Origin: Haloarcula taiwanensis
GTDB taxonomy: Archaea; Halobacteriota; Halobacteria; Halobacteriales; Haloarculaceae
NCBI GenBank assembly: GCA_002844335.1
Contig: CP019156.1
Span: 1 to 64,000 of the forward strand
DNA: 64,000 nucleotides
Direction: 5' to 3'
Positions 1,010-45,711 of the stretch are shown here, in pieces (within the stretch, counting starts at the first letter, position 1; every line of letters starts with the position of its first letter). Both the position numbers and the translations under genes were made by a program. The notes under the pieces were generated by a model, which saw only the letters and a list, made by a program, of their open reading frames with translations, was not told the origin of the DNA and did no database searches.

Positions 1010-1128
1010 AAGCGATTCCAAGACACACGACACGTTCTCACCTCGCTGACCGGCTCAATTGGATGGCGTCTATAGCCTCCATGTGAAGAGGCACTGGCAA
1101 CTTCCCCACCGTCGATGATCTCGTTCGG

Positions 1129-1343
1129 TTACCATCGGCTCGTCGATTCCGTCCTTCGACGCCACACTCGTCAGGGCGATGGAACCGAACGCCCCGCCAC
1201 CGATGACTCGCTGGCAGGCGGTAGACGAACTCCAGCAGGCCGGTGTGTCAGTGTTCGTCTCGATGTCGACCACATACCCGCCGATGGGCGAAGACGACTT
1301 TCACGAGCTACTCAGCTACTTTAGAGCGCTCGGTGAGGTCGTC
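1129..1343 (+). pseudogene. Internal fragment of a radical SAM gene (copy of part of the 37115-38458 gene)
   Basis: This stretch aligns without gaps to 37875-38089, inside the intact radical SAM gene further right. I count about 13 differences over roughly 207 bases. It corresponds to residues about 254-325 of that protein and carries neither the CxxxCxxC cluster motif nor the N-terminal zinc knuckle, so it cannot be functional. Identity stops abruptly at both ends. A reading frame runs from here into the small zinc-finger gene at 1545, but the join is not a meaningful fusion. Confidence 0.85.
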
Positions 1344-1748: not shown

Positions 1749-1790
1749 CTAACCAACATTCAGAGTGGATTGTACGCCAGTGTTGGTTAG
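1749..1790. repeat. 42-bp palindromic element, copy 1 of 4
   Basis: Perfect 10-bp inverted arms CTAACCAACA (1749-1758) and TGTTGGTTAG (1781-1790) with a 22-bp spacer. The same arms recur at 33275, 34050 and 38532 with unrelated spacers. It lies just downstream of the small zinc-finger gene. Confidence 0.85.
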
Positions 1791-29972: not shown

Positions 29973-30382
29973 CCTGCTGGGACTGACTGTACACGCTTTA
30001 TGCAGATACTGACATCGCCAACCGCTTACTCACAGTGCCGATTTCGCGACTACCCAATTGGAGGGCTTCCGACCGTAGGCACTGGACAGTCGTCTGTGAA
30101 TGAGGAGGGGCAGGCCGAGAGAGTTGGCGACCAGTCACGGGGCCACTCTCAGAACCGTAGGTCAGTGGTGAGATTACCCTGTCACACCTGTTGTGACCAC
30201 TGGAATCGCCGTGGTCGCTCCGTTCGTGTTACGACCACTCACTATACTCCTGAAAACAGGGGGTCGCTCCCGGTTGCTGCAGCTAGCAAACAGCGGCGTC
30301 GACGTCGGCAGGGCACGTACCACCGCGTCCAGTAGCGTTGGTTCAGTGTCGGTTCGTGTCCTATCCGGTGTGTGTCACAGGG
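29973..30382. other. Intergenic region, no feature recognised
   Basis: No protein-like frame, repeat or RNA was identified between the PIN remnant and the end of the coiled-coil gene. Confidence 0.4.
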
Positions 30383-31252
30383 TCAGGGCGTGGACTCCAC
30401 CACAACGGGTGTGACGCCACCTGTCGCGGCTTTGTGGTCGCTGTTCTCCAACAGATCGAGACCGACGTAGCGTTTTTCAAGCAGTCCCTCAGCGGTCTCG
30501 ATATCCATCGCGAGGATCTCTGTCTGTGTCTGGTCCCGTCCGACCTGCCGAGTTTTCTCGACGATGTCGCCGCCGCCGATCTCGATGAGCTTCTCCCAGA
30601 CGCGCTTGATCGTCTGGCGATGGGGCTCCTTCCCGAGTTCCGCGGTGAGGGCTGTCTCTATATCGCTCTTGGTCATGAACACGCCGCTGCCGTCAGTTCG
30701 CTTCGTGGCAAATTCCGGCCAGCGCTTGGCGATGCTGATGGCGCGATAGGTGTTCTGGCGGTTCGAGCGCTCGACGAACATGGTCTTGACTTTCGATTGG
30801 CGGCAGTTCGCGAAGAAATCCAGCGGTGAACTGCTGGGTTCGATTCCTTCGGGGAGCTGTTCGGCGTCCTCCTGGTGGTCGGTATCGGCTTCGAGTTGCT
30901 GGGCTTTGGCGATGGCACTCTTGGCGACATCGCGGGTGGTCTCCTGTTGTGATTCGAGATCGTCGAGGCGGTGGTCGTTCGTGGCGGCGTCACCGACGGC
31001 GGTGGTGGCAACCTCGTGGGTCTGTTCGAGGTCGGCCTCTAGTTCGGTGACGCGTTCGTGGAGGTCATCGATAGTCGCGACCAGCGTCTCAAGAACACTC
31101 GAAACGAGGGGTGACACATCGCCGTCGAGGTCGCTGACGAGCGCCTGGAGTTCGTCGGTATCCATCTCATCCTGTCCGATGTCCATGTCGAGGTGGTCGG
31201 CGAGGGCTTGGTCGGTCTCGTTGTCGTCGTTGGGGTTTGTTTGTCGTGGCAT
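30383..31252 (-). CDS. Coiled-coil protein with C-terminal winged-helix-like domain
   Basis: 289 residues from the ATG at 31252. The first about 120 residues are acidic and heptad-rich (L-E-T-L-V-A-T-I-D-D-L-H-E-R-V-T-E-L-E-A), indicating a coiled coil. Residues about 155-270 resemble a winged-helix domain (D-I-E-T-A-L-T-A-E-L-G-K-E-P-H-R-Q-T-I-K-R-V-W). Proteins of this layout occur on haloarchaeal plasmids and may bind DNA as dimers. A tRNA-like sequence lies 11 bp upstream of the start. Confidence 0.7.
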   Translation of the reverse strand: MPRQTNPNDDNETDQALADHLDMDIGQDEMDTDELQALVSDLDGDVSPLVSSVLETLVATIDDLHERVTELEADLEQTHEVATTAVGDAATNDHRLDDLESQQETTRDVAKSAIAKAQQLEADTDHQEDAEQLPEGIEPSSSPLDFFANCRQSKVKTMFVERSNRQNTYRAISIAKRWPEFATKRTDGSGVFMTKSDIETALTAELGKEPHRQTIKRVWEKLIEIGGGDIVEKTRQVGRDQTQTEILAMDIETAEGLLEKRYVGLDLLENSDHKAATGGVTPVVVESTP

Positions 31253-31262
31253 TGTGACCACA

Positions 31263-31310
31263 GGACCCGTGCTCGGAATCGAACCGAGCAGTGCTGACCA
31301 CAGCACGGGC
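31263..31310 (-). other. tRNA-like minihelix (T-arm plus acceptor stem)
   Basis: On the minus strand, GCCCGTG (31310-31304) pairs with CACGGGT (31271-31265) as a 7-bp acceptor-like stem. CTCGG-TTCGATT-CCGAG (31288-31272) forms a canonical T-arm with the GGTTCGATTCC consensus. D and anticodon arms are absent; only 15 nt lie between the stems. The interior can alternatively form GTGCT-GTGGTC-AGCAC. It could be a decayed tRNA, an attachment-site scar or a regulatory mimic in front of the coiled-coil gene. Confidence 0.55.
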
Positions 31311-31579
31311 TCTCGGTGACGTAGCTGGCGCTCTCTAGACGCGGTGGTTGGCTCGTGGCAACCCCGCTCCGTCTAGTGGATTTGTGTCGTGGCACCGCGC
31401 CGGTGACTAGCAGTGCGTATTCGTTGTCGCCGTCCGGACCAGCGTGGCACTGGGTTCACCGGTCGCGCTCCGCTGGTGGCAGTGGTACAGTCGTGGCTGG
31501 TTCCGTGGAGTCCTCGTGTGGATGGGCGGCCAGGTGCGGGTGCCCTGGAGGTAGGCCGGGCGGTTTGATTGGTGCGTAC

Positions 31580-31858
31580 TCATTGTGGGCCTCTGCTGAC
31601 GGCGAGTAGTATCTGTCTGGCTCCGCGTGTCCGTCTAGTGGTGTGCTCAGTCTGGGCCAGTGCAAGTCGGGCTGCGCAGGCGTCGAGGCGTGCTTGGGTC
31701 TGGCTGCGCTCGTAGCCCGGTGGATCGAGGACGGTCTGGCAGTACTCGATGACAGCAGCGTCAATGTCGGCGTTTGATAAGAGGCGCTTGGCTGTCGAGA
31801 GTCTACGCTCCTGCCGGTCCTGTGCGGTATCGTTTTGTGGTCTGATTGCTTCAGTCAT
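31580..31858 (-). CDS. Small helical hypothetical protein
   Basis: 92 residues from the ATG at 31858 (an ATG at 31906 is an alternative). Mostly helical, with an Arg/Ala-rich C-terminus (L-D-A-C-A-A-R-L-A-L-A-Q-T). No motif recognised. It lies divergently from the wHTH gene, about 110 bp away, and may share its operator region. Confidence 0.5.
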   Translation of the reverse strand: MTEAIRPQNDTAQDRQERRLSTAKRLLSNADIDAAVIEYCQTVLDPPGYERSQTQARLDACAARLALAQTEHTTRRTRGARQILLAVSRGPQ

Positions 31859-31968
31859 GATGCCGTGCGCGACCGGGCCAGCGGAGGTATGGCTCCGGTG
31901 GTCCATTTTCGTCGAACCTATCTGACCCGGTGAGTCGCGCATATTCGGTGGTATATCACCAGAAGTAC

Positions 31969-31989
31969 TTAGTGGTTTGCGTAGTACGT
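31969..31989. promoter_or_regulatory. Operator-like element upstream of the wHTH gene
   Basis: Read on the minus strand it is GTACTACGCAAAC followed by CACTAAGT. A copy in the opposite orientation lies at 32341-32360 with one gap and one or two changes. The pair flanks the regulator gene, as expected for autoregulation. Confidence 0.5.
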
Positions 31990-31996
31990 TGCAAAT

Positions 31997-32323
31997 ATGG
32001 CTGAAACAAGTAAAAATAGTAAGGAACGTTGCATCACTGGTGGAGTCGGAGTTAATTTGACCCTCCGAGCAGACGGTAGTGGCATGGGTAAAGAGGAGCG
32101 TAAACGAATGGTTCTGGGGCTCCTCGTTGAGTCCGGTCTTGAGCTTCCTCCTGCGGTGATTTTTGACAATCTGAAAGAGCGTGGTGCTACTTTTGAACGG
32201 CGTAGCGTCGACAATTATCTTGAGGAACTTCGCGAGGAAGGGCTGGTTGAGAGGACAGATGAGTCTAAAGGGTATAACAAGGCGACTGACAAAGGGCGAA
32301 GTTATTACTTGGACTTCGATTAG
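31997..32323 (+). CDS. Winged-helix regulator (phage-repressor-like)
   Basis: 108 residues. The winged-helix core spans about 35-95: L-G-L-L-V-E-S-G-L-E-L-P-P-A-V-I-F-D-N-L, recognition region R-R-S-V-D-N-Y-L-E-E-L-R-E-E-G-L-V. It ends with the wing and Y-Y-L-D-F-D. It resembles haloviral and haloarchaeal PhiH1-type repressors. Matching operator-like elements lie at the 5' side (31969) and 3' side (32341), the latter in front of the next gene pair, so it may repress itself and its neighbours. Confidence 0.75.
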   Translation: MAETSKNSKERCITGGVGVNLTLRADGSGMGKEERKRMVLGLLVESGLELPPAVIFDNLKERGATFERRSVDNYLEELREEGLVERTDESKGYNKATDKGRSYYLDFD

Positions 32324-32340
32324 AACCCGTATTTTGCACG

Positions 32341-32360
32341 GTACTCCGCAAATACTAAGT
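32341..32360. promoter_or_regulatory. Operator-like element upstream of the 32482 gene pair
   Basis: GTACTCCGCAAATACTAAGT, matching the element at 31969-31989 in the opposite orientation. It is followed by an AT-rich, TATA-like ataattag (about 32376). Confidence 0.5.
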
Positions 32361-32481
32361 GGTGCGGTACACGTATAATTAGATAGGAACAGACGCGCCG
32401 CTGGGCGATTTCGTGCCTTCGAGAACACGAGTTGCCCACGCTGTCATCAGCAGCGTAGGCGCGTCGGTTCCGGAATGAACC

Positions 32482-32811
32482 ATGAGTAAGTCTGCTTCGC
32501 CGACTAGTAAATCTGTCGGCACGACCGACGCACATCCACAGGAACGTATCGCTCGCGAACTGCTTACCCAGAGCCGCCCGCTTTTCCTCGGTGTCGACGG
32601 CGAAGGTGCGGCCCACTACTGGGACTCGTATGAATTCGCCGTGGCCGTTGTTGCCAGCGAAGACCACGCCGAGAAACTCCAACTTGCTGAGACGCCGTAC
32701 GACACGCTCGGCGAGTGGTGCGAGTACACGCAGGATGAACGTGGCTGGGCTGTCGGCCCACACGTCGGCGGCTCACTCGTCGGCGATATCGCTCGGAGGC
32801 TGAACACATGA
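32482..32811 (+). CDS. Hypothetical protein, first of a coupled pair
   Basis: 109 residues. The central motif R-P-L-F-L-G-V-D-G-E-G-A-A-H-Y-W-D-S-Y-E-F-A-V recurs in a degraded copy at 34634-34762. No enzyme motif is clear. The stop overlaps the next start by four bases (ATGA). Its repetition in the window suggests a small mobile or frequently duplicated module. Function unknown. Confidence 0.65.
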   Translation: MSKSASPTSKSVGTTDAHPQERIARELLTQSRPLFLGVDGEGAAHYWDSYEFAVAVVASEDHAEKLQLAETPYDTLGEWCEYTQDERGWAVGPHVGGSLVGDIARRLNT

Positions 32812-33071
32812 GCAAGACCGTTCGCTGCACGGTCGAGAACCGCCAGCGTGTCCGGCGCGCCGCCCGAGCGCTTCGGGAGACTGTCCCAACTGTGCTGGTC
32901 GAGACGACGCCACCGGTCCGTTCAGAACACGACGCCTGGACGCTCGATGCCGTGCTTCGGGAGACTGAGGGTATCCCGCCCGAGGTGCTTCGGGAGCTGG
33001 CACTCGCGGGCTTGACGTTGCAGCCGACGCCCACCCAAGCTAAGCACCAACACGTTGTGGCGACGGCCTGA
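32808..33071 (+). CDS. Hypothetical protein, second of a coupled pair
   Basis: 87 residues. A basic N-terminus (V-E-N-R-Q-R-V-R-R-A-A-R-A-L-R-E) is followed by a conserved tail L-D-A-V-L-R-E-T-E-G-I-P-P-E-V-L-R-E-L. Two truncated copies of that tail occur at 33912-34040 and 39623-39739. The basic helix could bind nucleic acid. A strong hairpin (33174) and a palindromic element (33275) follow. Confidence 0.65.
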   Translation: MSKTVRCTVENRQRVRRAARALRETVPTVLVETTPPVRSEHDAWTLDAVLRETEGIPPEVLRELALAGLTLQPTPTQAKHQHVVATA

Positions 33072-33173
33072 GCGAGACAGCGATACCTCTATCTTTTCGA
33101 TGACTTGCGTACCTGTTTTGCATGGGTTGCGATGGTTTCCGAGACTACTCCTGACAGCTCGCGACCCCGCGCC

Positions 33174-33196
33174 GGGACCTGTTAGAGACAGGTCCC
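33174..33196 (+). repeat. Perfect 9-bp hairpin downstream of the gene pair
   Basis: GGGACCTGT-TAGAG-ACAGGTCCC, about 100 bp after the stop at 33071. There is no U-tract after it, so a terminator role is uncertain. It may be an mRNA 3'-end stabiliser. Confidence 0.6.
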
Positions 33197-33274
33197 ATGG
33201 TGGCGTGAGTATGTACCTGTAAGTGACGGGTGACCGGTATGTACCCCCTCTTGGACTTCCGGGGTGGTAGTTCA

Positions 33275-33316
33275 CTAACCAACACTCGGTGGAGACAGTG
33301 GCCCAGTGTTGGTTAG
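33275..33316. repeat. 42-bp palindromic element, copy 2 of 4
   Basis: CTAACCAACA (33275-33284) and TGTTGGTTAG (33307-33316), spacer 22 bp. It lies downstream of the coupled pair ending at 33071. Confidence 0.85.
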
Positions 33317-33401
33317 TTAGGAGTGTTGTAGAACAGTTCTCTGGGCGACTGATCCCAAATCGATTGCTGGTGAATCGGCTGGTCAATATGCCTACTTATA
33401 T

Positions 33402-33779
33402 TCAGTATGGCCGTTTGCTGGCAAACCAAGCTGTGATGATACCTGCAATACCCGCAAGGAGGTACATAGCGAGAAACATCGGGGCAAGCGGGCCGGCTCC
33501 AGCAAAAATGAGATACAGGTGAATTGGAACCACTACAGCGAGTGTTCCTCCCACCGGGAGAGTGAATCGCTCTCGTTTCGTCGGGCGACTCAGAGCCTGC
33601 TCAAATGTGGCCTGCGTCGCTCCGAACACCATTGAAAGAACCCCAACAAGTATGACGAATACATTTTCAAACAGCCCCACTGGGCTTAACCACGGCATCC
33701 AGTGCGGAGGGAGGGCCACGAAAATACCCACATATGACAGTATAATGAACGCCACACCGATTGTAGTTCGTAGACCCAT
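33402..33779 (-). CDS. Small four-helix membrane protein
   Basis: 125 residues with four transmembrane segments (about 5-24, 33-53, 74-95, 98-118). Between the second and third is a basic loop (R-P-T-K-R-E-R). No family recognised. It sits between two copies of the palindromic element, on the opposite strand to the flanking genes. Confidence 0.65.
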   Translation of the reverse strand: MGLRTTIGVAFIILSYVGIFVALPPHWMPWLSPVGLFENVFVILVGVLSMVFGATQATFEQALSRPTKRERFTLPVGGTLAVVVPIHLYLIFAGAGPLAPMFLAMYLLAGIAGIITAWFASKRPY

Positions 33780-33911
33780 CTGAACTACCCTCGTATGAAT
33801 CTACACTACGGTTTCCGATTTAAAACCAGTAGAACCACTTTCATAGTGTGTTCCGTCTTTCTACTATACTGATCAGATCGCCACGAGCGATTAACTCAGT
33901 GTTCGCAGTTT

Positions 33912-34040
33912 CTTGATGCTGTCCTTCGCGAGACCGAGGGTGTGCCGCCCGAAGTGCTCTGGGACCTTGCGCTGGCCGGGCTGACGGTGCAGCCGACGCC
34001 GTCGCAGGCGGAGTATCAGCACGTGGCGGCGACAGTGTAG
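33912..34040 (+). pseudogene. Fragment of a paralogue of the 32808 gene
   Basis: 42 codons reading L-D-A-V-L-R-E-T-E-G-V-P-P-E-V-L-W-D-L-A-L-A-G-L. They match the C-terminal half of the protein at 32808-33071 and end with a stop at 34040. The N-terminal half is missing. A palindromic element begins 10 bp later. Confidence 0.8.
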
Positions 34041-34049
34041 CGAAAAGCG

Positions 34050-34091
34050 CTAACCAACAATAGCTTACCAATACCTGTGACTGTTGGTTAG
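34050..34091. repeat. 42-bp palindromic element, copy 3 of 4
   Basis: CTAACCAACA (34050-34059) and TGTTGGTTAG (34082-34091), spacer 22 bp. It starts 10 bp after the stop of a truncated gene. Confidence 0.85.
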
Positions 34092-34633
34092 CCGACTATC
34101 GGTTGATTTCTGACCGTCGGTTGTTGCTCACCATCTCACCAGAAATACCCGCCCAGAGGATATGCATATTGCGCCTGCAACCCCGATCAAATTCGTCACT
34201 CAGCGCTGTGTGGAGGAACGAAACCGCAGTTCGAACAGCCGTTGTGCTTCGTCGTCTGATAGCTCAATCCCGCGCCGCAGTTTGGACAGTTGTACTGGTC
34301 GAAACTCATCAGCGTCAAAAAACGCTCGACAGCATCTAAAATTTCACATGATATATGTCTAATCTTTTTAACGGATAGCTCGTTTGTACTGACCGCATTC
34401 GTCTTTAGCTAATACTCACAGTAATAATATTACACCGTGATTTTCGGTCGAATTTCGCCCATACACCACACCAAAACGCCGAAAACCACCGATGTTATTA
34501 TTGACTATCGCAGGATTTCACAAGGAACAGCACCTCGACCGACGGAATTGGCTCTCCTAACACCCACAGTTATAATTGAATCTCCAAGAATTACTACTAG
34601 TGTTAGCTAAAGACGAATGGTACTGACCGTCTC
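34092..34633. other. AT-rich region without genes
   Basis: No gene supported. A sequence like tcgtctttagctaa at about 34400 recurs inverted as ttagctaaagacgaa near 34605, about 200 bp apart, perhaps marking the ends of an inserted or deleted segment. Confidence 0.45.
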
Positions 34634-34762
34634 GGCCGCGAACTACTCACCCAAGACCGCCCGCTGTTTCTCGGTGTCGACGGCGACGGTGCAGCCCACT
34701 ACTGGGATAGCTATGAGTTCGCCGTGGCTGCTGTCGAAGCCGACGGTGAAGCAGAGAAGGTC
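34634..34762 (+). pseudogene. Fragment of a paralogue of the 32482 gene
   Basis: It reads G-R-E-L-L-T-Q-D-R-P-L-F-L-G-V-D-G-D-G-A, then A-H-Y-W-D-S-Y-E-F-A-V, matching the middle of the protein at 32482-32811. It lacks a start and the C-terminal third, where the frame runs into unrelated AT-rich sequence. Confidence 0.8.
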
Positions 34763-34888
34763 GTGTCTATTCCTGTAACCTAAATTCACCTTAGAACCTG
34801 TATGCATTATCTCTATTGACCTGAATAGTCACGTAAACAAATCATCAAGTAATAATTAATATCCTGCATTACATCATCAGGTTATACG

Positions 34889-35923
34889 ATGGATTCGTCT
34901 GAATATATTAAGAAAAGAATTCAATCTCTCAAGCAGGATTCAGAGGATATCCGTAATATATCTCCAGTCACAAATGATTTTGATAGCTGGTCTGTCCTGA
35001 AACTGATACTCCACTCTGCTGCGGTTAATATGTACACAAAGGTCCTCTCCAACAACGATTTTGATGACCTCTACTATATTGATGCGCTCGCTGGTTCGGG
35101 GATTTCAACGTACAATAGCGGCGAGTCGTGTTTCCTTGGCTCCCCGGTAATCGCAGCTAAAGTTGCGCAAGAGCCGTTCAAAAAAATGTATCTTATTGAG
35201 AATGACGATGACAAAGCAGATGCATTGAAAGCAAGGATGGAGTATATTTTTTCGACTCATGATGACGCCGAAAAGCCAGAGGAATTAGTAATAAAGAGGG
35301 GCGATGCAAATCAGAAAATTCCGGAGGTTGTCAGCGATATTTGGCAGAGCAGCGAGGGGCAATTCAACTATTACTGTTTCATTGACAATCAAGAATTGAA
35401 TGTTAGGTGGGATGCTATAGAGGAACTAACTCCTAAGCCATGGGGCGACCTGCTCATTAACCTTCCAATAGCATCGGCTATAGGACGTAATGCCACTACT
35501 ACACCCGTTCCCGAGAAATTGAATAAATTCTATTGTTGCGATCTGAATGAACAAAATCTACCAGACAGTGATATCAGACCAGTAATGCGCGGTCTATACG
35601 AGGACTGTTTAGCACAAAGGAATCGGGCTGTCCAGCGGACTGTGAACGTCGACGCTGACGTAGGAAGTTATGAATATGACCTCGTTTACGCAACCCGTGA
35701 TATCTCAGGAGGAAATGGGTATATCAAGGTCATTGACCATGTTAAGGAATTTATTGAAGACGTTGATGCAGGGGACATTGACAATATCCATAGCGTTCTG
35801 TATGATGACCAATCCTCGCTTGAGCAGTACCTACCAGCAGGGAACATTGACGACGAAATTGTCGCTGAAGACGATACCGATACTGACGAAAACCAGTCCA
35901 GTTTAGGAGAGTTCTGCGAGTAA
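34889..35923 (+). CDS. TcmP-like protein (three-Cys-motif partner family)
   Basis: 344 residues, encoded by markedly AT-rich DNA. The start of the fold (Y-Y-I-D-A-L-A-G-S-G, about residues 65-74), then L-G-S-P-V-I-A and Y-L-I-E-N-D-D-D-K-A, match the methyltransferase-like TcmP family. Its members are commonly found beside radical SAM proteins with a CxxxCxxC motif. The C-terminus is acidic. The stop is 7 bp from the stop of a convergent radical SAM gene. The biochemical role of the family is not established. Confidence 0.65.
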   Translation: MDSSEYIKKRIQSLKQDSEDIRNISPVTNDFDSWSVLKLILHSAAVNMYTKVLSNNDFDDLYYIDALAGSGISTYNSGESCFLGSPVIAAKVAQEPFKKMYLIENDDDKADALKARMEYIFSTHDDAEKPEELVIKRGDANQKIPEVVSDIWQSSEGQFNYYCFIDNQELNVRWDAIEELTPKPWGDLLINLPIASAIGRNATTTPVPEKLNKFYCCDLNEQNLPDSDIRPVMRGLYEDCLAQRNRAVQRTVNVDADVGSYEYDLVYATRDISGGNGYIKVIDHVKEFIEDVDAGDIDNIHSVLYDDQSSLEQYLPAGNIDDEIVAEDDTDTDENQSSLGEFCE

Positions 35924-35930
35924 CAAACCA

Positions 35931-36980
35931 CTACTCTACTCCGACAGGAGTGGCAGGCGCAGGCTCCTGCGGCACATCCCGTCCCGCAAACTCTTCAGGC
36001 GACTGGCGCTCCCGCCAATGCTGCATCCAAGCCGCTGTCTCTTCATCGACGTGCTTGATCAGTTGCTTATCGGGCCACAGATGGACCGGTAGGTCGAGCT
36101 CACGCCCAATCTCCTGAACCCATCGTAGGTGATTCGTCGCATACTTGACCCACCGCTCACGAGATCGCAACGTATCCAACTCTTCAGCTAACTCCGTTTC
36201 ACCAGCGTCCCGCGCTGCCTCGACAGTCATCTCGAAGTTCCCGCCACGGGGATTAATCGGCTCGTGAAATACTACAGCCGGATCACACTCAGCAACCCGC
36301 TCCAACTGCTCCCGAAGGTCAGCTTTGTCTTGCGTGGGATAAGTCGGACTCATGCTGACGAACGTCTGAACGCCATGTTCGTTGAATTCTTTCAGGCCCT
36401 TCAACCGCAACTCCGGCGCTGGCGCACTTGGCTCAATTGCTCCGACTTGATCGGCATCCATACACGGAATCGATGAGCCGATGGTGACGTGCTCGCCCCC
36501 ATCCTGAAATACATCCAGATCCTGCAACGCCAGAATCGGATTCCGCGTTAGGACCCGTGTGTGTTTTTCATGACTGGTTAATGCATCCACGACATTGCGG
36601 GTAATCTTCCCCGCACGACCATCCATATAGCAATCAGTAGAAAAAGAGACTCCAACAACGCCCTGTCCTCGCTTGGTTGGATTCCAAGAACGCTTCCGGT
36701 CTAGATGCTCGTCAAGCCGTTCACCCAGTCCGTCGCGATAGAGCACGTAGCTTCCCCACTCTTTCTGCCCGTTATCAACGTCAGCCTCTTCTTCGAGCAT
36801 ATCCGGCCGCGCTCGAATGTTCGGCGTCGAGGGAACATAGCAGAACTTGCAGCCATGCCGACAGCCTGTCGCTACGTTGACAACGTAGTCACACAGATGC
36901 TTGCTGTTGAGCCCCGATTCGCTGAGAATCGCCTTCGTAGGGTCTTCTCCCGTCCGAACGTCTTCGTGGTCGTCTGTCAT
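35931..36980 (-). CDS. Radical SAM protein (CxxxCxxC, SPL/COG1533-like)
   Basis: 349 residues. Cluster-binding Cys40, Cys44 and Cys47 (C-R-H-G-C-K-F-C-Y) begin a radical SAM barrel with I-G-S-S-I-P, V-S-M-S-P-T-Y-P and F-H-E-P-I-N-P-R-G. The enzyme should cleave S-adenosylmethionine reductively to start a radical reaction; the substrate is unknown. It shares extended similarity with the next gene but lacks that protein's N-terminal zinc-knuckle extension. Convergent with the TcmP-like gene. Confidence 0.82.
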   Translation of the reverse strand: MTDDHEDVRTGEDPTKAILSESGLNSKHLCDYVVNVATGCRHGCKFCYVPSTPNIRARPDMLEEEADVDNGQKEWGSYVLYRDGLGERLDEHLDRKRSWNPTKRGQGVVGVSFSTDCYMDGRAGKITRNVVDALTSHEKHTRVLTRNPILALQDLDVFQDGGEHVTIGSSIPCMDADQVGAIEPSAPAPELRLKGLKEFNEHGVQTFVSMSPTYPTQDKADLREQLERVAECDPAVVFHEPINPRGGNFEMTVEAARDAGETELAEELDTLRSRERWVKYATNHLRWVQEIGRELDLPVHLWPDKQLIKHVDEETAAWMQHWRERQSPEEFAGRDVPQEPAPATPVGVE

Positions 36981-37114
36981 ATGTTATCTTGTCTTTCTCG
37001 TCTACTACTAGATATAAATGTGTGCAACACAGTTCAACTTCCAGTTTCACTTTCACTCCGCGTGGCTGACTTCTAATGGGGTCCAGTATAAAAAGACAGG
37101 TAGGAGAAAGACGA

Positions 37115-38458
37115 ATGGAACTCACTTGGGACACCGGCGATAGCTGGTTCGAACGGACATACGCCGTCGAACACGCCGGGGAGACGGTCGCCACGTTCGA
37201 CGACCATCCGACACTCGACACGCTTCGCGAACTCTCACGACAACACGGTGTCCCAACTGAACGGCTCGACCTCTGGCAAGCCGGGCTGCTGTGTACACAG
37301 TGCAACGACGAAATCAACGACCGCTTTGCCGCCAATCCACAGGGTGACCTGCTATGTTGGGACTGTGCCACTGACACCGAAAGCCACGACGAGCATGGGA
37401 TTACGGTCAACACTGACCCAACGAAGTCGGTGATGAGCGAATCCCATCTCCACACCAAGAGTCTCTGTGACCACGTTATCAACGTCGCCACCGGATGCCG
37501 GCACGGCTGTGAGTTCTGCTACGTGCCAACCACGCCGGCTATCGACAGTCGCGATGAGATGCTCGCTGAGCAGGCTAATGTCGACGATCCACAGACCGAC
37601 TGGGGGAGCTATCTGCTGTACCGGGACGACCTCCCAGAGCGACTGGAGAACATCCTCGACGAACGTGATCCCAGTGAGCGCAAGCAGACTGAGCGCGGTC
37701 GGGGCGTTGTGATGCTGTCCAGCGGCACTGACTGTTACCAGGACCGACGGACGGCTCAGATCACACGTGGCGCTGTCGCCGAACTCATCACACACGATAT
37801 TCCCATCCGAATTCTCACGCGAAGCCCTGCCGTGACTCGGGATATCGACCTCTTCCAAGCCGCCGGTGACCACATTACCGTTGGCTCGTCGATTCCCTCG
37901 TTCGATGCCACACTCGTCAGGGCGATGGAACCGAACGCCCCACCTCCGATGACTCGCTGGCAGGCGTTAGACGAACTCCAGCAGGCCGGTGTGTCGGTGT
38001 TCGTCTCAATGTCGCCGACATACCCGACGATGGGCGAAGACGACTTTCACGAGCTACTCAGCTACTTCAGAGCGCTCGGTGAGGTTGTCGTCTTCCACGA
38101 ACCAATCAACCCGAGGGGCCAGAACTTCCAGCAGTGTCTCGACGCCGCCGAGCAAGCCGGCTACGGCGACGTTGTCACCGAACTCCAACAGATGCAAGAC
38201 AGCCATCAGTACTGGGTCGAGTATGCTCTTGAGCAACTGAACACGGTCCAGCAGGTCGCAACGCGCTTCGACGGGCTCGAAGTGCACTCCTGGCCAGACG
38301 ATGAACTGGTGCGCTCGACGAGCGGCCAACTGCGGTCAAAGCTCAACGCGATGCAAGAGGCCGTCTCACCGGAGTCATTCTCCGAGCGTAATACAGATGT
38401 CTCGCCTGAGCAGTCCGAGTTAGCCCGGGACGGCGAGTCCATAGAGCATCTCATCTAA
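37115..38458 (+). CDS. Radical SAM protein with N-terminal zinc-knuckle extension
   Basis: 447 residues from the ATG at 37115. Residues 1-95 form an extra domain with two CxxC pairs (Cys60/63 and Cys81/84), probably binding zinc. The radical SAM motif is Cys128, Cys132, Cys135 (C-R-H-G-C-E-F-C-Y), followed by the same barrel motifs as the previous gene. The two radical SAM genes are divergent and about 130 bp apart. A segment is duplicated at 1129-1343. A palindromic element follows at 38532. Confidence 0.85.
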   Translation: MELTWDTGDSWFERTYAVEHAGETVATFDDHPTLDTLRELSRQHGVPTERLDLWQAGLLCTQCNDEINDRFAANPQGDLLCWDCATDTESHDEHGITVNTDPTKSVMSESHLHTKSLCDHVINVATGCRHGCEFCYVPTTPAIDSRDEMLAEQANVDDPQTDWGSYLLYRDDLPERLENILDERDPSERKQTERGRGVVMLSSGTDCYQDRRTAQITRGAVAELITHDIPIRILTRSPAVTRDIDLFQAAGDHITVGSSIPSFDATLVRAMEPNAPPPMTRWQALDELQQAGVSVFVSMSPTYPTMGEDDFHELLSYFRALGEVVVFHEPINPRGQNFQQCLDAAEQAGYGDVVTELQQMQDSHQYWVEYALEQLNTVQQVATRFDGLEVHSWPDDELVRSTSGQLRSKLNAMQEAVSPESFSERNTDVSPEQSELARDGESIEHLI

Positions 38459-38531
38459 CGACCGGCATGTCGTCGGGATACGCGCCATAGCCCACCCTCT
38501 GAGAACTGGTTTGTCTCGATATGCAGCACGG

Positions 38532-38572
38532 CTAACCAACAACTGGGGCAGTTATGGCTCTGTGTTGGTTAG
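38532..38572. repeat. 41-bp palindromic element, copy 4 of 4
   Basis: CTAACCAACA (38532-38541) and TGTTGGTTAG (38563-38572), spacer 21 bp. It lies 73 bp after the radical SAM stop. Confidence 0.85.
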
Positions 38573-38591
38573 CTACAATCCAGCGGACCGT

Positions 38592-38818
38592 TCACTCCCC
38601 AACCGCGTCTTCGATAATCTCGATTTCCTCGTCGGTCAACCCATACAGCTCGTAGACGATCTCATCAATCAAGTCGTCAGTCCGCTCAATCTTGCCTCCA
38701 ACTCGTCAGCTCGCCCGACTGTCTCCATGTAACTCGCCAGTCCATCGCGAACGTCGTCGACGGTTGGCAACGTCAGCGTCCGAAGGCGATCTACCAGCGA
38801 GTTTGTCTTCGTCGCCAT
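38592..38818 (-). pseudogene. C-terminal remnant of a restriction-modification (Eco57I/BREX-type) methylase
   Basis: From the ATG at 38818 the frame reads L-P-T-V-D-D-V-R-D-G-L-A-S-Y and L-E-A-R-L, then stops. Shifting one base gives D-D-L-I-D-E-I-V-Y-E-L-Y-G-L-T-D-E-E-I-E. The pattern D-x-L-I-D-x-I-V-Y-x-L-Y-G-L-T-x-E-E is the usual C-terminus of large type IIG/Eco57I-like methylases. The rest of the gene is missing and the fragment is frameshifted. Confidence 0.6.
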
Positions 38819-38995
38819 CTCACGGAAGCCAGCGAACAATGCTTACGGATAACCCGATTCGAGGTTCGGCCGCAATTGTCCAGTGAACCAAGGTCAAGCC
38901 ACTCGGCACCGTCAGTTAGTACGCCATAGGGTGCGATAAGCACAGTAATTGTTAGACTAGATGAAAACACTGGATGAAGCAGAGTCCGTACTGAT

Positions 38996-39358
38996 TCAGG
39001 GACAGCTTGAGGAGATGTCGTACCACGCCAGCCCTTGAGAAATAATGAGGAGCCAACTTGCACCACCCGGCCCACCCTGAATTCGGTCGGCGGACCGACG
39101 CTGTGCAGCCAGACATTCCTCAGAAAGTTCCGAGGTATCGGTTGACACAACTACCTGGCCGTCAGCAGTAACGCCACTATCGCTGAAATCAGTAGTCTCG
39201 GGACATGCTTCGGTCGGTCCTGGTATCTCACTTTCGTCACAGCTGTCTGAGCTATATGCCGACGGCTGTGCAGTCGCCGTTGCTGGAGTAAACCCAATTA
39301 TGAGGATAACCGCCACCGTAACGCCAAGTAGGTCTGTTGAACGAGACACAGTATTCAT
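38996..39358 (-). CDS. Small secreted protein
   Basis: 120 residues from the ATG at 39358. A signal peptide (about 1-30: L-L-G-V-T-V-A-V-I-L-I-I-G) ends at A-T-A-Q. The mature part is acidic and contains four or five cysteines that could form disulfides. No family recognised. Upstream in-frame sequence is not protein-like. Confidence 0.5.
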   Translation of the reverse strand: MNTVSRSTDLLGVTVAVILIIGFTPATATAQPSAYSSDSCDESEIPGPTEACPETTDFSDSGVTADGQVVVSTDTSELSEECLAAQRRSADRIQGGPGGASWLLIISQGLAWYDISSSCP

Positions 39359-39622
39359 GCAGCACGGAAATAAATAATCTTTCAGCATTATTTGTAAAGC
39401 TAAACACGTATCTAGCTGAACGGCAATTAATCTGGAGTCGATACAGGCTAAGGGAGGCCGAGCTATCCAGCTGTAGCAAGGATGAAAATGCCACCCGGAA
39501 GTATGCGAGATACTGTAGTGGAGCGGTAGTGCGTTCATCGAACTACAAGGGCGATTCGTGACGGAGTGGGGACTGAGTCCGTAGATATGCTCGCGCCGAA
39601 CGCCAGTTAGTACAATGTGTGA
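39359..39622. other. Intergenic region, nothing recognised
   Basis: No gene, repeat or RNA noticed. Confidence 0.4.
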
Positions 39623-39739
39623 ACGCTCGATGCTGTGTTGCGTGATGCTGAGAGTGTGCCGCCCGAGGTGTTGCGGGAGTTAGCGCTGGCTGGATTGACA
39701 CTGCAGCCGACGCCATCAGGAGCGAAGGTCCAGCCATGA
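39623..39739 (+). pseudogene. Second fragment of a paralogue of the 32808 gene
   Basis: It reads T-L-D-A-V-L-R-D-A-E-S-V-P-P-E-V-L-R-E-L and ends with a stop at 39739. It matches the C-terminal half of the protein at 32808. No palindromic element follows this copy. Confidence 0.75.
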
Positions 39740-40148: not shown

Positions 40149-40342
40149 GTGGCTCTACCAGATGATATCGAACGTATCGCAGCTATCCTAACCCGCGAGC
40201 AGATATGTCTGAGCGACGCTGGGACATTGAAAAGAACCCATATAGATGATAGCAGATCTACCTCGCCACTCCTCAGCCGCCGCTCCTACAGTCTCGGTTT
40301 CCCCATCGGTCAATTGAACCCACCCGAGATGACCAACACGGA

Positions 40343-42505
40343 CTACTCCTCCTCTGGGAGGAAATCAGTGAGTGTCGTTGGTTCGGGTTCTGCTTCCATT
40401 TCGTTTTCAAGTGACTGTGGATCAGGAGCGGGGAAAACCATTTCAGGCTCATCTGCCGTGACCCCATCAAGCACTGATCGCATCTCATCGAACGCGTCGC
40501 ACGAACCAGTCCCAGTAACGTGACACCACCCACGAGTCCGAGTCATCGCGACAAAGGCCTGATTGCGTCGCCGGACCAGTGATTGCCCACTAGAGACATT
40601 GTCAACGTGCTCTAACCCAGAAATATAGACCATTGCCGCTTCGTTCCCTTTCGCACGGTTGATCCGAGTAACGGTTACTTCATCGTCGACCGCGAACACG
40701 CTCGATTCACCGTCCCACACTCGGTTGAAGACGATATCATCAGCCGTGGCTTCATCGAGACGATCCGTCGGCTCATCCGCATTCTCCTGTGTTTCTCGAT
40801 CCAAGAGAATGACCATGATCTGCTCTGGGTCAAGCCCGTGAGCCGTAATATCCTGTGAGATACTCTCAGCAATCAGTTCTATTTCCTCGCGTTTCGTCTC
40901 AGCAGCGGAGAAGCGGACGAATGGACGAGCCTCTTCGTGTTCGCTCAGCGGATGTGGCGAATTCTCTTCAGGGCGACGAATTCGGACATCCTCGCCTGTG
41001 CGGCGGAAGTCACCATCAACGACCTCGTATCCGAGATTTTCCCAGCCGGGCTTTGTTGTGATCGCTTGCACGGCACCCTGCTCTCGTTTCAGCCCCATTC
41101 CAAAGTAGTGGGCCGCCATGAGAACCTCTCGCGGTGAGCGGTACGCTTTCCGCATTATCTGGGACTTCTGGATACCACCCTCATATGACCCGCTCAGATC
41201 AACAAGCAACTCGCCATCATCGTTAGTCCCGAAGATATTCTCGGATCGAGGTGCCGTGAGTGAGTTCAGGCTCTGGGCCTCATCATACGCCCAGACAAGT
41301 CGTTTGGGCTCGCGAAGTGCTTCGCGACACATTTTGAAGAAATTCGGGAGGAAATCTTGGGCCTCGTCGATCAAGACCGCATCGAACATCGTGGGGACTT
41401 CTCCCGATTCGATAAGAGAGCCACAGCAGGAATCAAGCAAGTCCGGTGTTTTTTCGAATCGGCCAAACCGAGCACGAGCGTCGCCGACGTTGAGGAATTC
41501 GTGTGTTTGCGTGTTCTGTGAAAGAACATAGTACATCCCATCAAGCACTGTGTGGCCACCCCAGCCGTGGAGCAGTCGCAATTTGTTCCAGTTTGGCTCT
41601 TCCTCTGCGAAATGCCAGTAGAAGCGAGAAATAAGACTCTGGATCTGGGGATAGAGACTCTTGGTCATAAACGTGACCGCAATATCCCACTCTGGATGTT
41701 TTGCGTGCATCCGGGCTGCCTTCATCGCCATCAGAATGGTTTTGCCAGAGCCTGCAATACCCCGAATTCGCTGAGGGCCGGGGGGAATCTGAATCCCGAT
41801 TTCCTCTTGTTTTTGATCAAGCTTCGGGAGGCGCTGTTCGACTGTATCATAGAGCTCTCCTTTGGTGGTTGGATCTGGTGGTGCAGCAGTTCCCTCGTTG
41901 CCGATGACGGTTCCACCACCGAGGACTGACCGAGCAGCACGGAATTCCTCACTGGAGAGTGCCTCCATCTTCGGTGTCTTGTTTAACTGGTCACGAAGTG
42001 ACTGGGGCGAAAGGTCGTCTGAGGTGAGTACCCGAGGTGTCGACGGGAGTTCATCATACCCGCATTCGGTCCACTCCTCACGCGAGATGTTGGGGAGCGC
42101 AATGAACACGTTCACTGGAATCTTACACCGGCCCATCTCGTCAGTGAGTTCGCTTTCCCGAGCGAAATACGACCGAATCTTAAACGCCTGATCCCGGGCT
42201 TGTGGATGAGGTTTCGCCTTCGACTGGGTTAGTCCCTGGAGATTCCATACCTGTCCCTGGATTGTATCAATGTGGTCGATCTGGTAGCCTTTACACTCGA
42301 TAACAATGAGCCCCAGCTCTTGATGCAGAACCACAAAATCAGGTTCTCGATCATAGTCCTCACCGCTCTTGTCGATGACTGGATACTTGTAGTAGGCTAT
42401 ACCCAGATCGTCCGCTCCGAACGCGCTTTTGATTGCGTCCCAGACCGGCAACTCAGCCTCACTACCTCTCTGCCCTGTATCGACTTCGGTCGGTATGAAA
42501 TCCAC
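40343..42505 (-). CDS. NERD-domain SF1 (UvrD-like) helicase
   Basis: 720 residues. The N-terminal NERD nuclease-related domain has Asp56, Glu70 and Lys72 in the PD-(D/E)XK arrangement (E-P-D-F-V-V-L ... I-E-C-K-G). The helicase has Walker A G-I-A-G-S-G-K-T at about 253-260, Walker B L-I-D-E-A-Q-D-F and the motif VI-like V-A-M-T-R-T-R-G. Such proteins unwind and may cut DNA or RNA and are frequent in defence islands. The remnant nuclease and methylase nearby support that setting; the target is unknown. Confidence 0.85.
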   Translation of the reverse strand: MDFIPTEVDTGQRGSEAELPVWDAIKSAFGADDLGIAYYKYPVIDKSGEDYDREPDFVVLHQELGLIVIECKGYQIDHIDTIQGQVWNLQGLTQSKAKPHPQARDQAFKIRSYFARESELTDEMGRCKIPVNVFIALPNISREEWTECGYDELPSTPRVLTSDDLSPQSLRDQLNKTPKMEALSSEEFRAARSVLGGGTVIGNEGTAAPPDPTTKGELYDTVEQRLPKLDQKQEEIGIQIPPGPQRIRGIAGSGKTILMAMKAARMHAKHPEWDIAVTFMTKSLYPQIQSLISRFYWHFAEEEPNWNKLRLLHGWGGHTVLDGMYYVLSQNTQTHEFLNVGDARARFGRFEKTPDLLDSCCGSLIESGEVPTMFDAVLIDEAQDFLPNFFKMCREALREPKRLVWAYDEAQSLNSLTAPRSENIFGTNDDGELLVDLSGSYEGGIQKSQIMRKAYRSPREVLMAAHYFGMGLKREQGAVQAITTKPGWENLGYEVVDGDFRRTGEDVRIRRPEENSPHPLSEHEEARPFVRFSAAETKREEIELIAESISQDITAHGLDPEQIMVILLDRETQENADEPTDRLDEATADDIVFNRVWDGESSVFAVDDEVTVTRINRAKGNEAAMVYISGLEHVDNVSSGQSLVRRRNQAFVAMTRTRGWCHVTGTGSCDAFDEMRSVLDGVTADEPEMVFPAPDPQSLENEMEAEPEPTTLTDFLPEEE

Positions 42506-42897
42506 AGTAATACGTCTATATATACACGGTAAAAAGTTGCCATGAAATGTATAAAAAATGCTATTTCATTACCGTACGAATTCCAGTAAGACTAGATATG
42601 ACTACAGTGAGTACAGGAGAGCACTGGTAGTGTGGTGAGTTACGCTTGATTACCTCCAAGCGACTAACAGGCTGTGAAATGCTTCACAAACTCAGTATCC
42701 TTCTTGACTGGTGAATTGATCCGAGAATCAGCGGTTAGATCTGGTTGAGTTCAAATCAATGCAAGTGGATCTCTTGCCGGAGCCGGTTTATATCGTGGGC
42801 CAGTCGCTACTCTACTGGATTTCAGCAAATTCCGTCGATAAAAGGTGTGGTGTGGGAAAATAGGCGCTACTCCGCGATCGTTCTCTTATCTTAGCAC
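42506..42897. other. AT-rich intergenic region
   Basis: Upstream region of the helicase gene and downstream region of the next gene. A T/A-rich tract close to the helicase start (tatatatac, about 42518) may be its TATA box. Nothing else recognised. Confidence 0.4.
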
Positions 42898-43218
42898 CTA
42901 TCCGAATTCAATCTCCGGGTCTGGCTCATCCAAGACTTCTGCTGCTACATCCTCTGTAACAGCCAAGTTGTACCCCTTTTTTGCGAGGGTTTCGGCTGCA
43001 TATGCAAGTCCGCTCAGATCAATCTGCCACATTTCATCTTCGGAATCCCATTGTCTGTGAGTCTCACTCCAGTCCAAATCTTTGAGTGCGCCTTTAGCTC
43101 TGTATGGGCAGGTGACATAGACTTTATTACCGTACTCGGTACTGTGGGGTTCGCAAAAACATATGATTGAGTCGATCTGTGGAACTCGTGAGACGATATC
43201 TATCTTCCTCATCGCCAT
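42898..43218 (-). CDS. Hypothetical protein with HARP-like fold
   Basis: 106 residues. The stretch V-T-C-P-Y-R-A-K-G-A-L-K-D-L-D-W followed by H-R-Q-W-D-S-E-D-E-M-W-Q-I-D-L resembles the HARP module of annealing helicases, in which a basic patch meets D-x-x-x-W. The start codon abuts the stop of the upstream gene, so the two are cotranscribed. Assignment tentative. Confidence 0.5.
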   Translation of the reverse strand: MAMRKIDIVSRVPQIDSIICFCEPHSTEYGNKVYVTCPYRAKGALKDLDWSETHRQWDSEDEMWQIDLSGLAYAAETLAKKGYNLAVTEDVAAEVLDEPDPEIEFG

Positions 43219-43761
43219 CTATAGCTGCCCTACGTGTGGCATCTTTTGATTATTGTAGAGATGCGATTGGAGGGGCTCACTGTTTGTAGATCGCGATTGT
43301 TCGTTCCGCTCAGGCTCTTCAAAGATTCCGTTGAGACCGGTCTCCGCACAAAACGTTCCAATTGCCTCTTTTCTCCTATCATCAAAATCCTGGCTTAGTT
43401 TCGATAGGAGCCACTGTACCGCGTGCAACGTGCGCTCAGAATACTCACTCATATTGATCTCAACATGACGAGCTTCCCCCAATACTGTTCTTTCTATCTT
43501 TGTTGCTTCTCTTTTTATTAGCTCATCATCCCGCTTCGTTTCAAGCCTGAAATCATTGTTTGTAGTCGTGCGATTATTTGTTTCAAGAACTATATATTTC
43601 TCTAAAGTATACAGCTGTTCGGTAAGTATACCCAGTTGGATTATTGTCTGACTGAACTGCTCACCTTCGGTTATGTAATTAAGAACTTTAGAGAATTGGG
43701 GCTTCGCTTCCAACGTGTTCTTTTGATAGCTGAATGAGACGGGATCGACTTGCTCACTCAT
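43219..43761 (-). CDS. Helical hypothetical protein
   Basis: 180 residues, mostly helical, with no Trp/Cys-rich or catalytic motif, encoded by AT-rich DNA. It forms a two-gene unit with the HARP-like protein (adjacent stop and start). The unit diverges from the DnaK gene across an AT-rich 350-bp region and might belong to the same system. Family not recognised. Confidence 0.55.
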   Translation of the reverse strand: MSEQVDPVSFSYQKNTLEAKPQFSKVLNYITEGEQFSQTIIQLGILTEQLYTLEKYIVLETNNRTTTNNDFRLETKRDDELIKREATKIERTVLGEARHVEINMSEYSERTLHAVQWLLSKLSQDFDDRRKEAIGTFCAETGLNGIFEEPERNEQSRSTNSEPLQSHLYNNQKMPHVGQL

Positions 43762-44112
43762 ATTTATACTTGCTATTTATACAACTGTAGTTACAATAAA
43801 TGTTTGCCATGTTCCGAGATAATATCTAATATGATAATCTTGGCGCGGCCGTTATTAACACTACACTCACGATTTCTAAGTGATAAATTTATAGATCGCA
43901 GCTACCAGTTTTCCTAACTGAAATAAGATGGAAACGTTAAAATAAGATATAGCGGACACTACTCGTAATAAATCCGGATCTACAATCTAGATCTTATAAT
44001 TGATAGCAGACGTAAGAAGTAGAGCAAAATATTTTTCGTATAAAATGATAATACGACATATACATGAAAACCACTCAAGATAATGCAGTGTTAATGTAGC
44101 ATTCTTGTTATA
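43762..44112. promoter_or_regulatory. AT-rich divergent promoter region
   Basis: About 350 bp of strongly AT-rich sequence between the divergent helical-protein and DnaK genes. Several TATA-like tracts are present, so no single promoter can be picked. Confidence 0.4.
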
Positions 44113-45705: not shown

Positions 45706-45711
45706 CTATCG

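What the first reader, a model, noticed from the sequence alone, without database searches (positions are those of the whole stretch)
34889..38458. TcmP-like protein with two divergent radical SAM proteins, possibly an undescribed system
An AT-rich TcmP-like gene is convergent with one CxxxCxxC radical SAM gene and linked to a second that carries an extra zinc-knuckle domain. TcmP proteins are known to occur beside radical SAM proteins, but the reaction is not established, and two different radical SAM partners in one locus are noteworthy. The setting (restriction remnants, NERD helicase, Mrr and PIN genes) is consistent with defence, yet DNA repair or tRNA modification are also possible because the radical SAM parts recall spore photoproduct lyase relatives.
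Basis: partly seen in the sequence, partly recalled or inferred. Interest (0 to 1): 0.62.

Follow-up and report, generated by a model that had tools for sequence, protein, structure and literature searches.

The report
Clamp-tagged methyltransferase-fold protein with radical-SAM pair
A salt-loving archaeon carries on a plasmid a real three-gene module, two sister radical enzymes plus a swappable partner whose tail looks like a docking tag for the DNA replication clamp, which points to an unstudied way of chemically altering DNA, perhaps against viruses.

Summary
The three genes are real and belong together. In 293 haloarchaeal genomes, 24 carry a near-full-length relative of the first radical-SAM protein; 21 have TcmP beside it, and all 18 loci with two radical-SAM genes have TcmP (one copy disrupted).

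New findings: (1) TcmP's predicted fold is closest to RlmJ, an m6A methyltransferase; Lys, Asp, GS and Glu positions are kept, but DPPY reads DNQE here. (2) Haloarchaeal TcmPs without the canonical C-terminal winged helix end in a PIP box (PCNA tag): 13 of 13, and 4 of 4 held out. (3) The radical-SAM pair evolves as a unit (identity correlation 0.92) while TcmP is exchanged wholesale (0.09).

Best reading: a mobile nucleic-acid modification module, probably acting on DNA at the clamp and used in genome conflict, with TcmP as exchangeable targeting subunit. Chemistry, substrate and phenotype are unshown. It is a variant of the TcmP-DUF5131 pair (candidate defence PDC-M30/M41), with two spore-photoproduct-lyase-like radical-SAM proteins in place of DUF5131. 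A bacterial QxxLF clamp motif looked general (26 of 36) but failed an independent check (2 of 11).

The parts
34889..35923 (+). TcmP, 344 aa, RlmJ-like methyltransferase fold
   Evidence: TIGR04474 75.4 bits over cut-off 53; AF2 pLDDT 76.4, pTM 0.78; best fold RlmJ
35894..35914 (+). C-terminal PIP-box-like codons, residues 336-342 QSSLGEF, in a tail predicted disordered
   Evidence: Q..[LIM]..[FYW] in the last 16 aa in 13 of 20 haloarchaeal TcmP, 0 of 634 other ORFs of the same loci; held-out 4 of 5; residues 293-344 pLDDT under 50
35810..35830 (+). second PIP-like stretch, residues 308-314 QSSLEQY, close to where many bacterial TcmP have QxxLF
   Evidence: bacterial comparison (mixed result)
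35931..36980 (-). rSAM1, 349 aa, radical SAM without N-terminal zinc domain
   Evidence: PF04055 33.5 bits; relatives beside TcmP in 21 of 24 genomes
36840..36863 (-). rSAM1 cluster motif CxxxCxxC (C40, C44, C47)
   Evidence: invariant in 39 of 39 aligned rSAMs, with a further invariant C30
37076..38458 (+). rSAM2, 460 aa, radical SAM with N-terminal CxxC...CxxC domain
   Evidence: PF04055 49.3 bits; model nearest MgmA and spore photoproduct lyase
37292..37366 (+). rSAM2 zinc-binding-like domain, C73, C76, C94, C97
   Evidence: sequence; zf_Tbcl_Rhp7 17.3 bits, below cut-off 27; same domain in rSAM2 relatives and in both rSAMs of 7 loci
37496..37519 (+). rSAM2 cluster motif CxxxCxxC (C141, C145, C148)

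Best explanation
A mobile three-component nucleic-acid modification module, most likely acting on DNA. TcmP, an RlmJ-like methyltransferase-fold protein, would bind SAM and flip out or present a base, and in haloarchaea dock on the PCNA clamp through its PIP tail. The paralogous radical-SAM pair, conserved as a unit, would then carry out radical chemistry on that base or on the methyl group set there. TcmP is the exchangeable, fast-diverging targeting subunit, so the module probably serves genome conflict (marking or poisoning newly replicated DNA of one party) rather than housekeeping. Shown here: gene association, TcmP fold prediction, PIP tails, TcmP exchange, mobility. Inferred: substrate DNA, clamp binding, the reaction, the defence role.
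For: TcmP beside rSAM1 in 21 of 24 and in 18 of 18 two-rSAM loci; 5 of 5 distinct held-out haloarchaeal TcmP beside a family rSAM. Fold: RlmJ, Foldseek E 2.5e-7, VIA Z 16.9, rmsd 3.5, 221 aligned; Lys (K38), Asp (D166) and GS (G84-S85) invariant in 19 of 19, Glu (E104) nearly so, where RlmJ needs K18 and D164 (PMC3814359 passages). PIP tail 13 of 13 plus 4 of 4; consensus QXXhXXaa from PMC4929162. Exchange: identity correlations 0.09 (TcmP-rSAM1) against 0.92 (rSAM1-rSAM2) over 55 pairs of 11 loci; DNA homology to three loci with foreign TcmP starts at 35956-35986, inside the 3' end of rSAM1. [quoted passage not shown] Plasmid cargo slot holds another gene in pHH126. PADLOC lists TcmP and DUF5131 as PDC-M30/M41.
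Against: No direct evidence for the reaction, substrate, clamp binding or any phenotype. RlmJ acts on RNA. The window clade has DNQE where RlmJ has DPPY, so methyl transfer may be lost. The window's tail has one aromatic residue (QSSLGEFC) where the PIP consensus has two. None of the 8 canonical haloarchaeal TcmP (7, 1) has a strict C-terminal PIP, and the bacterial QxxLF motif held in only 2 of 11 independent proteins, so clamp docking is not shown for the family. No nuclease or effector is linked to the trio. Neighbours are mixed: defence genes but also housekeeping genes.
Confidence: 0.42

Rival explanations
1. Clamp-directed DNA repair: the SPL-like radical-SAM pair reverses a DNA lesion and TcmP brings it to stalled forks, as suspected for NreB-SplB.
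For: SPL is the second-best solved fold for rSAM2; PIP tails; NreB-SplB gene pairs in archaea; haloarchaea live in strong sunlight (general knowledge).
Against: Sporadic (TIGR04474 in 20 of 293 genomes), often on plasmid-size contigs, with TcmP swapped and old copies decaying; repair genes are rarely that unstable. PF20903 not reached.
Confidence: 0.2
2. RNA modification: TcmP methylates an rRNA or tRNA adenine as RlmJ does and the rSAM pair elaborates it, giving resistance to a translation toxin or a viral nuclease.
For: Nearest fold is an rRNA m6A enzyme, with tRNA methyltransferase Trm1 next; MiaB/RimO models match weakly.
Against: PIP tails and, in canonical members, a wHTH domain suggest DNA; DPPY not kept.
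Confidence: 0.17
3. The trio makes a small antiviral or toxic nucleotide, as viperin does, and TcmP is a modifier or immunity partner.
For: Radical SAM enzymes of defence are known to make nucleotide poisons (general knowledge); TcmP exchange resembles a variable partner.
Against: Foldseek ranks viperin far below SPL and MgmA (rank 50); a clamp tag would be odd for a soluble product.
Confidence: 0.08
4. TcmP is the target or antidote rather than the guide: the rSAM pair modifies TcmP or a protein of the clamp.
For: The best rSAM2 match is MgmA, which methylates a protein; rSAM enzymes often act on peptides (general knowledge).
Against: TcmP keeps SAM-site and catalytic Lys and Asp positions in 19 of 19, unneeded in a mere substrate.
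Confidence: 0.1

Closest known systems
TcmP-DUF5131 (Gp37/Gp68) pair, PADLOC candidates PDC-M30 and PDC-M41
   Same: TcmP (TIGR04474) beside a Cys-rich radical-SAM-like gene, often convergent, on plasmids and mobile elements; 8 of 9 annotated plasmid loci have DUF5131 (Gp37/Gp68) close by, and a phage locus has it by its motif
   Different: Here two SPL-like CxxxCxxC radical-SAM proteins replace the CX6CX2C DUF5131 protein; no PDC-M30B/M41B match for either; TcmP lacks the wHTH and ends in a PIP box
RlmJ, 23S rRNA m6A2030 methyltransferase
   Same: Best solved fold for TcmP (Z 16.9) and catalytic Lys and Asp positions
   Different: DPPY is DPFG in canonical TcmP and DNQE here; sequence identity 14%; radical-SAM partners; PIP tail
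Spore photoproduct lyase / SplB-like radical SAM proteins, with NCBIfam Rv2578c, PA0069 and mobile pair B
   Same: CxxxCxxC and fold; weak profile matches
   Different: NCBIfam matches far below cut-offs (best 94 bits of 360); extra invariant Cys before the cluster motif; always beside TcmP when paired
Archaeal NreB-SplB gene pairs
   Different: NreB is not described as TcmP-related there; I did not compare sequences; one SplB gene, not two

Membership tests
TcmP (TIGR04474) | score over the curated cut-off | tested here: met
   75.4 bits, cut-off 53
PDC-M30/M41 (TcmP + DUF5131) | TcmP component A | tested here: met
   PDC-M41A 51.5 bits, E 2.8e-14; PADLOC gives no cut-off in this tool
PDC-M30/M41 (TcmP + DUF5131) | DUF5131 component B | tested here: not met
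   no PADLOC match at E 0.1 and no PF07505 match for either rSAM
Radical SAM superfamily | PF04055 over cut-off and CxxxCxxC | tested here: met
   33.5 and 49.3 bits, cut-off 29.5; motif in 39 of 39 aligned members
Spore photoproduct lyase | PF20903 over cut-off | tested here: not met
   rSAM1 13.9 of 27 bits; rSAM2 not listed
Spore photoproduct lyase | same fold | tested here: inconclusive
   4fhc E 5.1e-5, TM-score 0.55 on the target; model pLDDT 71.5, cluster loop poorly predicted
RlmJ m6A methyltransferases | RlmJ-like fold | tested here: met
   Z 16.9, rmsd 3.5, 221 aligned
RlmJ m6A methyltransferases | motif IV DPPY | tested here: not met
   DNQE in the window; DPFG, DPKG or DPEG in others
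PCNA-binding (PIP box) proteins | QXXhXXaa | tested here: inconclusive
   window QSSLGEFC has one aromatic; full QSGLGDFF and QSGLSDFF in G223 and G246
PCNA-binding (PIP box) proteins | binds PCNA | not testable with these tools
   no complex prediction or assay on hand
Anti-virus defence systems | protects against a virus | not testable with these tools
   needs an infection assay

The most novel reading that the evidence does not exclude
A clamp-guided radical-SAM DNA-modification immune system: TcmP, an exchangeable methyltransferase-fold specificity subunit, rides the sliding clamp (PIP box in haloarchaea, possibly a QxxLF clamp motif in some bacteria) and hands replicating DNA to a radical-SAM pair that writes an unknown hypermodified base, marking self or crippling invaders.
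Probability: 0.25. Interest if true: 0.88.

Novelty: new variant of a known kind. Interest (0 to 1): 0.62.

Why it matters
TcmP and its radical-SAM-like partners are on many plasmids and some temperate phages, yet my searches of the paper library showed only passing mentions (the two I opened are) and no function. The RlmJ-like fold, the PIP tails and the wholesale exchange of TcmP turn an orphan gene pair into a testable idea: methyltransferase-fold guide plus radical enzyme, delivered by the replication clamp. The chemistry, if on DNA, would be new.

Tried and rejected
NERD helicase (40343-42505) as a fourth member: rejected, as it is in pHH126 without the trio and its PADLOC helicase model matched 1 of 94 neighbour ORFs.

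QxxLF as a general bacterial clamp motif: 26 of 36 in alignment A6 at one column. That set had been fetched with patterns that include FIDPFG, and several rows are close relatives. In 11 proteins from other records (10 plasmid, 1 phage) only 2 had it at the expected place and one or two a loose form. Kept only as part of the novel case.

Structures of relatives by sequence: no PDB match to the TcmP or rSAM profiles at E 0.1; one weak one (E 0.075) for a DUF5131 protein.

Viral contigs: TcmP queries found nothing; the rSAM profile found 1 locus.

Rfam on 33000-39200: only a sub-threshold hit. sigma-70 and terminator scans: near the shuffled mean, and not suited to archaea.

rSAM2 3' stubs as a site-specific element: six stubs (two in L040, one each in L041, L055, L057, L122) start near codons 289-294 with unrelated upstream DNA, others elsewhere; no conclusion.

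Defence-island statistics: 94 neighbour ORFs of at least 170 aa within 3.5 kb of the trio in 20 loci were scanned, without a matched control, so no enrichment is claimed.

Rows dropped: G098 (disrupted TcmP) and G186 (195-aa fragment) are not among the 20 TcmP; G119 is not in the 19-row alignment A1; L087, L095 and L102 (split, partial or short) were left out of A6. The identity table used 11 of the 18 two-rSAM loci, those in which rSAM1 lacks the zinc domain.
Full report
What is there. The window lies on a 130-kb contig of a 3.72-Mb, four-contig haloarchaeal genome; plasmid matches are almost all Haloarcula (19 of 21 records), so I take it for a Haloarcula plasmid. TcmP passes TIGR04474, both rSAMs pass PF04055. 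rSAM2 has an N-terminal CxxC...CxxC domain with a sub-threshold match to the Rhp7 treble clef. rSAM1 and rSAM2 are paralogues, 47% identical.

Is it a system? I searched 293 genomes of the order. TIGR04474 is over cut-off in 20 of 293, a TcmP protein search matched 15 of 293, and rSAM1 matched 32 of 293, of which I count 24 as near full length, the other 8 being fragments. In 20-kb stretches or shorter contigs, TcmP is beside the rSAM in 21 of these 24. All 18 loci with two rSAM genes have TcmP, in one of them (G098) split by about 950 bp. G038, G190 and G237 have TcmP with one rSAM. G102, G209 and G155 have one rSAM without TcmP; in G209 it lies beside what I read as ribosomal protein genes. 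G186 has a TcmP fragment without rSAM. In 392 genomes the TIGR04474 count is 24, with 4 new genomes; with Haloarcula sp. JP-L23 these give 5 distinct held-out proteins, all beside an rSAM of the family; a Halocatena salina plasmid repeats G347. The flanks held there are too short to judge the second rSAM in all of them.

The wider family. A profile search of species genomes gave 39 loci. TcmP is next to a CX6CX2C protein of the DUF5131 type in most bacterial loci (two tested pass PF07505 with 340 and 344 bits). A few have other radical SAM partners, some over the SPL cut-off (3 of 10 proteins tested). Of 9 annotated plasmid loci 8 have DUF5131 close by; a Gordonia temperate phage has TcmP and, by its motif, DUF5131 between immunity repressor and integrase. 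With one query, TcmP matched 63 of 72,556 plasmid records and 10 of 50,697 phage records. PADLOC lists TcmP and DUF5131 as PDC-M30 and PDC-M41. The window's rSAMs match neither B component.

TcmP fold and active site. The AF2 model of the window TcmP (37-row alignment, pLDDT 76.4, pTM 0.78; residues 293-344 under 50) is nearest RlmJ (Foldseek E 2.5e-7; VIA Z 16.9, rmsd 3.5, 221 residues). Trm1 has Z 16.0, and other Rossmann methyltransferases about 14, so RlmJ stands out only modestly. RlmJ needs K18 and D164 of DPPY (PMC3814359, passages). In 19 haloarchaeal TcmP the Lys (K38 here), Asp (D166) and GS are invariant and the Glu nearly so; that these are the RlmJ equivalents is my reading of motif order, not a residue-level superposition. 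Canonical TcmP has DPFG; the window clade has DNQ (window, G140, G125, G005, G151, G245) or DNE (G238). So SAM binding is likely kept and methyl transfer is open.

Clamp tag. Canonical TcmP has a C-terminal wHTH (PF22560; of 9 proteins tested, among them 2 of the short clade, 5 are over cut-off, 1 below, 3 without). The window clade and a second short clade lack that region in the alignment. In the last 16 residues 13 of 20 haloarchaeal TcmP match Q..[LIM]..[FYW]: all 13 of these two clades, none of 7 canonical ones; 0 of 634 other ORFs of at least 150 aa in the same loci match, many of which are not real genes. Held out: 4 of 4 non-canonical match, the 1 canonical does not. [quoted passage not shown] For bacteria, QxxLF (clamp-motif consensus, PMC12309361 passages) was at one column in 26 of 36 proteins, and haloarchaeal ones have PIP-like or QxxLF/W stretches nearby, but 11 other proteins gave 2 strict matches at that place. 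I therefore claim PIP tails for haloarchaea only.

TcmP is exchanged. Over 55 pairs of 11 loci, TcmP identity does not track rSAM1 (r 0.09) or rSAM2 (r -0.03), while rSAM1 and rSAM2 track each other (r 0.92). Window and G230: rSAM1 90%, rSAM2 93%, TcmP 21%. DNA homology to G230, G157 and G238 begins at 35956, 35964 and 35986, in the last codons of rSAM1. In G230, G157, G288 and G131 TcmP even has the other orientation.

Mobility. Plasmid pHH126 of Haloarcula hispanica N601 shares the backbone (84% over 30179-33265, 98-99.5% over 40152-46000) and has a 607-aa gene of no known family in place of the trio. Pieces of rSAM2, mostly its 3' part, are scattered over genomes of the genus (15 of 32 have any match, 6 of them a full-length one), which suggests repeated loss. 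Among 94 neighbour ORFs of 20 loci are type IIG restriction enzymes, Cas1d and Cas3d, GmrSD and candidate defence proteins, but also translation-factor and flagellin genes; no control was run.

rSAM side. All 39 aligned rSAMs keep CxxxCxxC and a further Cys (C30 of rSAM1). The rSAM2 model (11 rows, pLDDT 71.5) is nearest MgmA and SPL; the loop with the cluster motif is poorly predicted.

How it most likely works. Inference: TcmP binds SAM and a base in its RlmJ-like pocket, is held at replicating DNA by PCNA, and gives the base to the rSAM pair. The pair is the conserved engine, TcmP the changeable guide. Frequent exchange and loss fit genome conflict better than repair. RNA as substrate remains a serious rival because the nearest folds are RNA enzymes.

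Novelty. TcmP with DUF5131 is catalogued as candidate defence. The version with an SPL-like pair, the RlmJ-like fold, the PIP tails and the TcmP exchange I did not find in print (searches in an open-access library; of PMC12988326 and PMC13092281 I saw only term searches).

Noticed in passing
window 1749-1790, 33275-33316, 34050-34091, 38532-38572: Inverted repeat CTAACCAACA-N(20-22)-TGTTGGTTAG with variable centre. 14 sites in the own genome, all on contigs C2, C3 and C4, none on C1; reversed-pattern control 0. In 25 of 293 genomes of the order. Two sites bracket the trio; on C4 one lies beside what I read as a ParA gene. Partition, recombination or regulatory site: not known.
   Followed up: partly
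L040, L041, L055, L057, L122; window 1128-1337: Truncated pieces of rSAM2 on Haloarcula plasmids; six junctions near codons 289-294 with unrelated upstream DNA, often about 60-110 bp before the inverted repeat.
   Followed up: partly
L120 6712-8535: 607-aa predicted protein of no Pfam or PADLOC family occupies the trio's slot in pHH126; possibly another cargo of the same kind.
   Followed up: partly
L103 320-1411: A viral contig encodes a lone rSAM 58% identical to the rSAM1 query, with no TcmP noticed on the side that was held.
   Followed up: no
L132 1974-3841: Gordonia temperate phage with TcmP and a DUF5131-type gene between immunity repressor and integrase, a place typical for lysogeny cargo.
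   Followed up: no
L049 9259-10419; L052 9647-10693: Chromosomal single rSAMs (TDPYM in place of TDCYM), in L049 beside what I read as ribosomal protein genes, without TcmP: perhaps the housekeeping ancestor.
   Followed up: no
L034 9746-11681: TcmP of G098 is split by about 950 bp between residues 173 and 176.
   Followed up: no
window 32929-33066, 33912-34040, 39512-39717, 34625-34766: Decayed copies of a small plasmid gene pair (32482-33071) repeated around the trio and on relatives.
   Followed up: no
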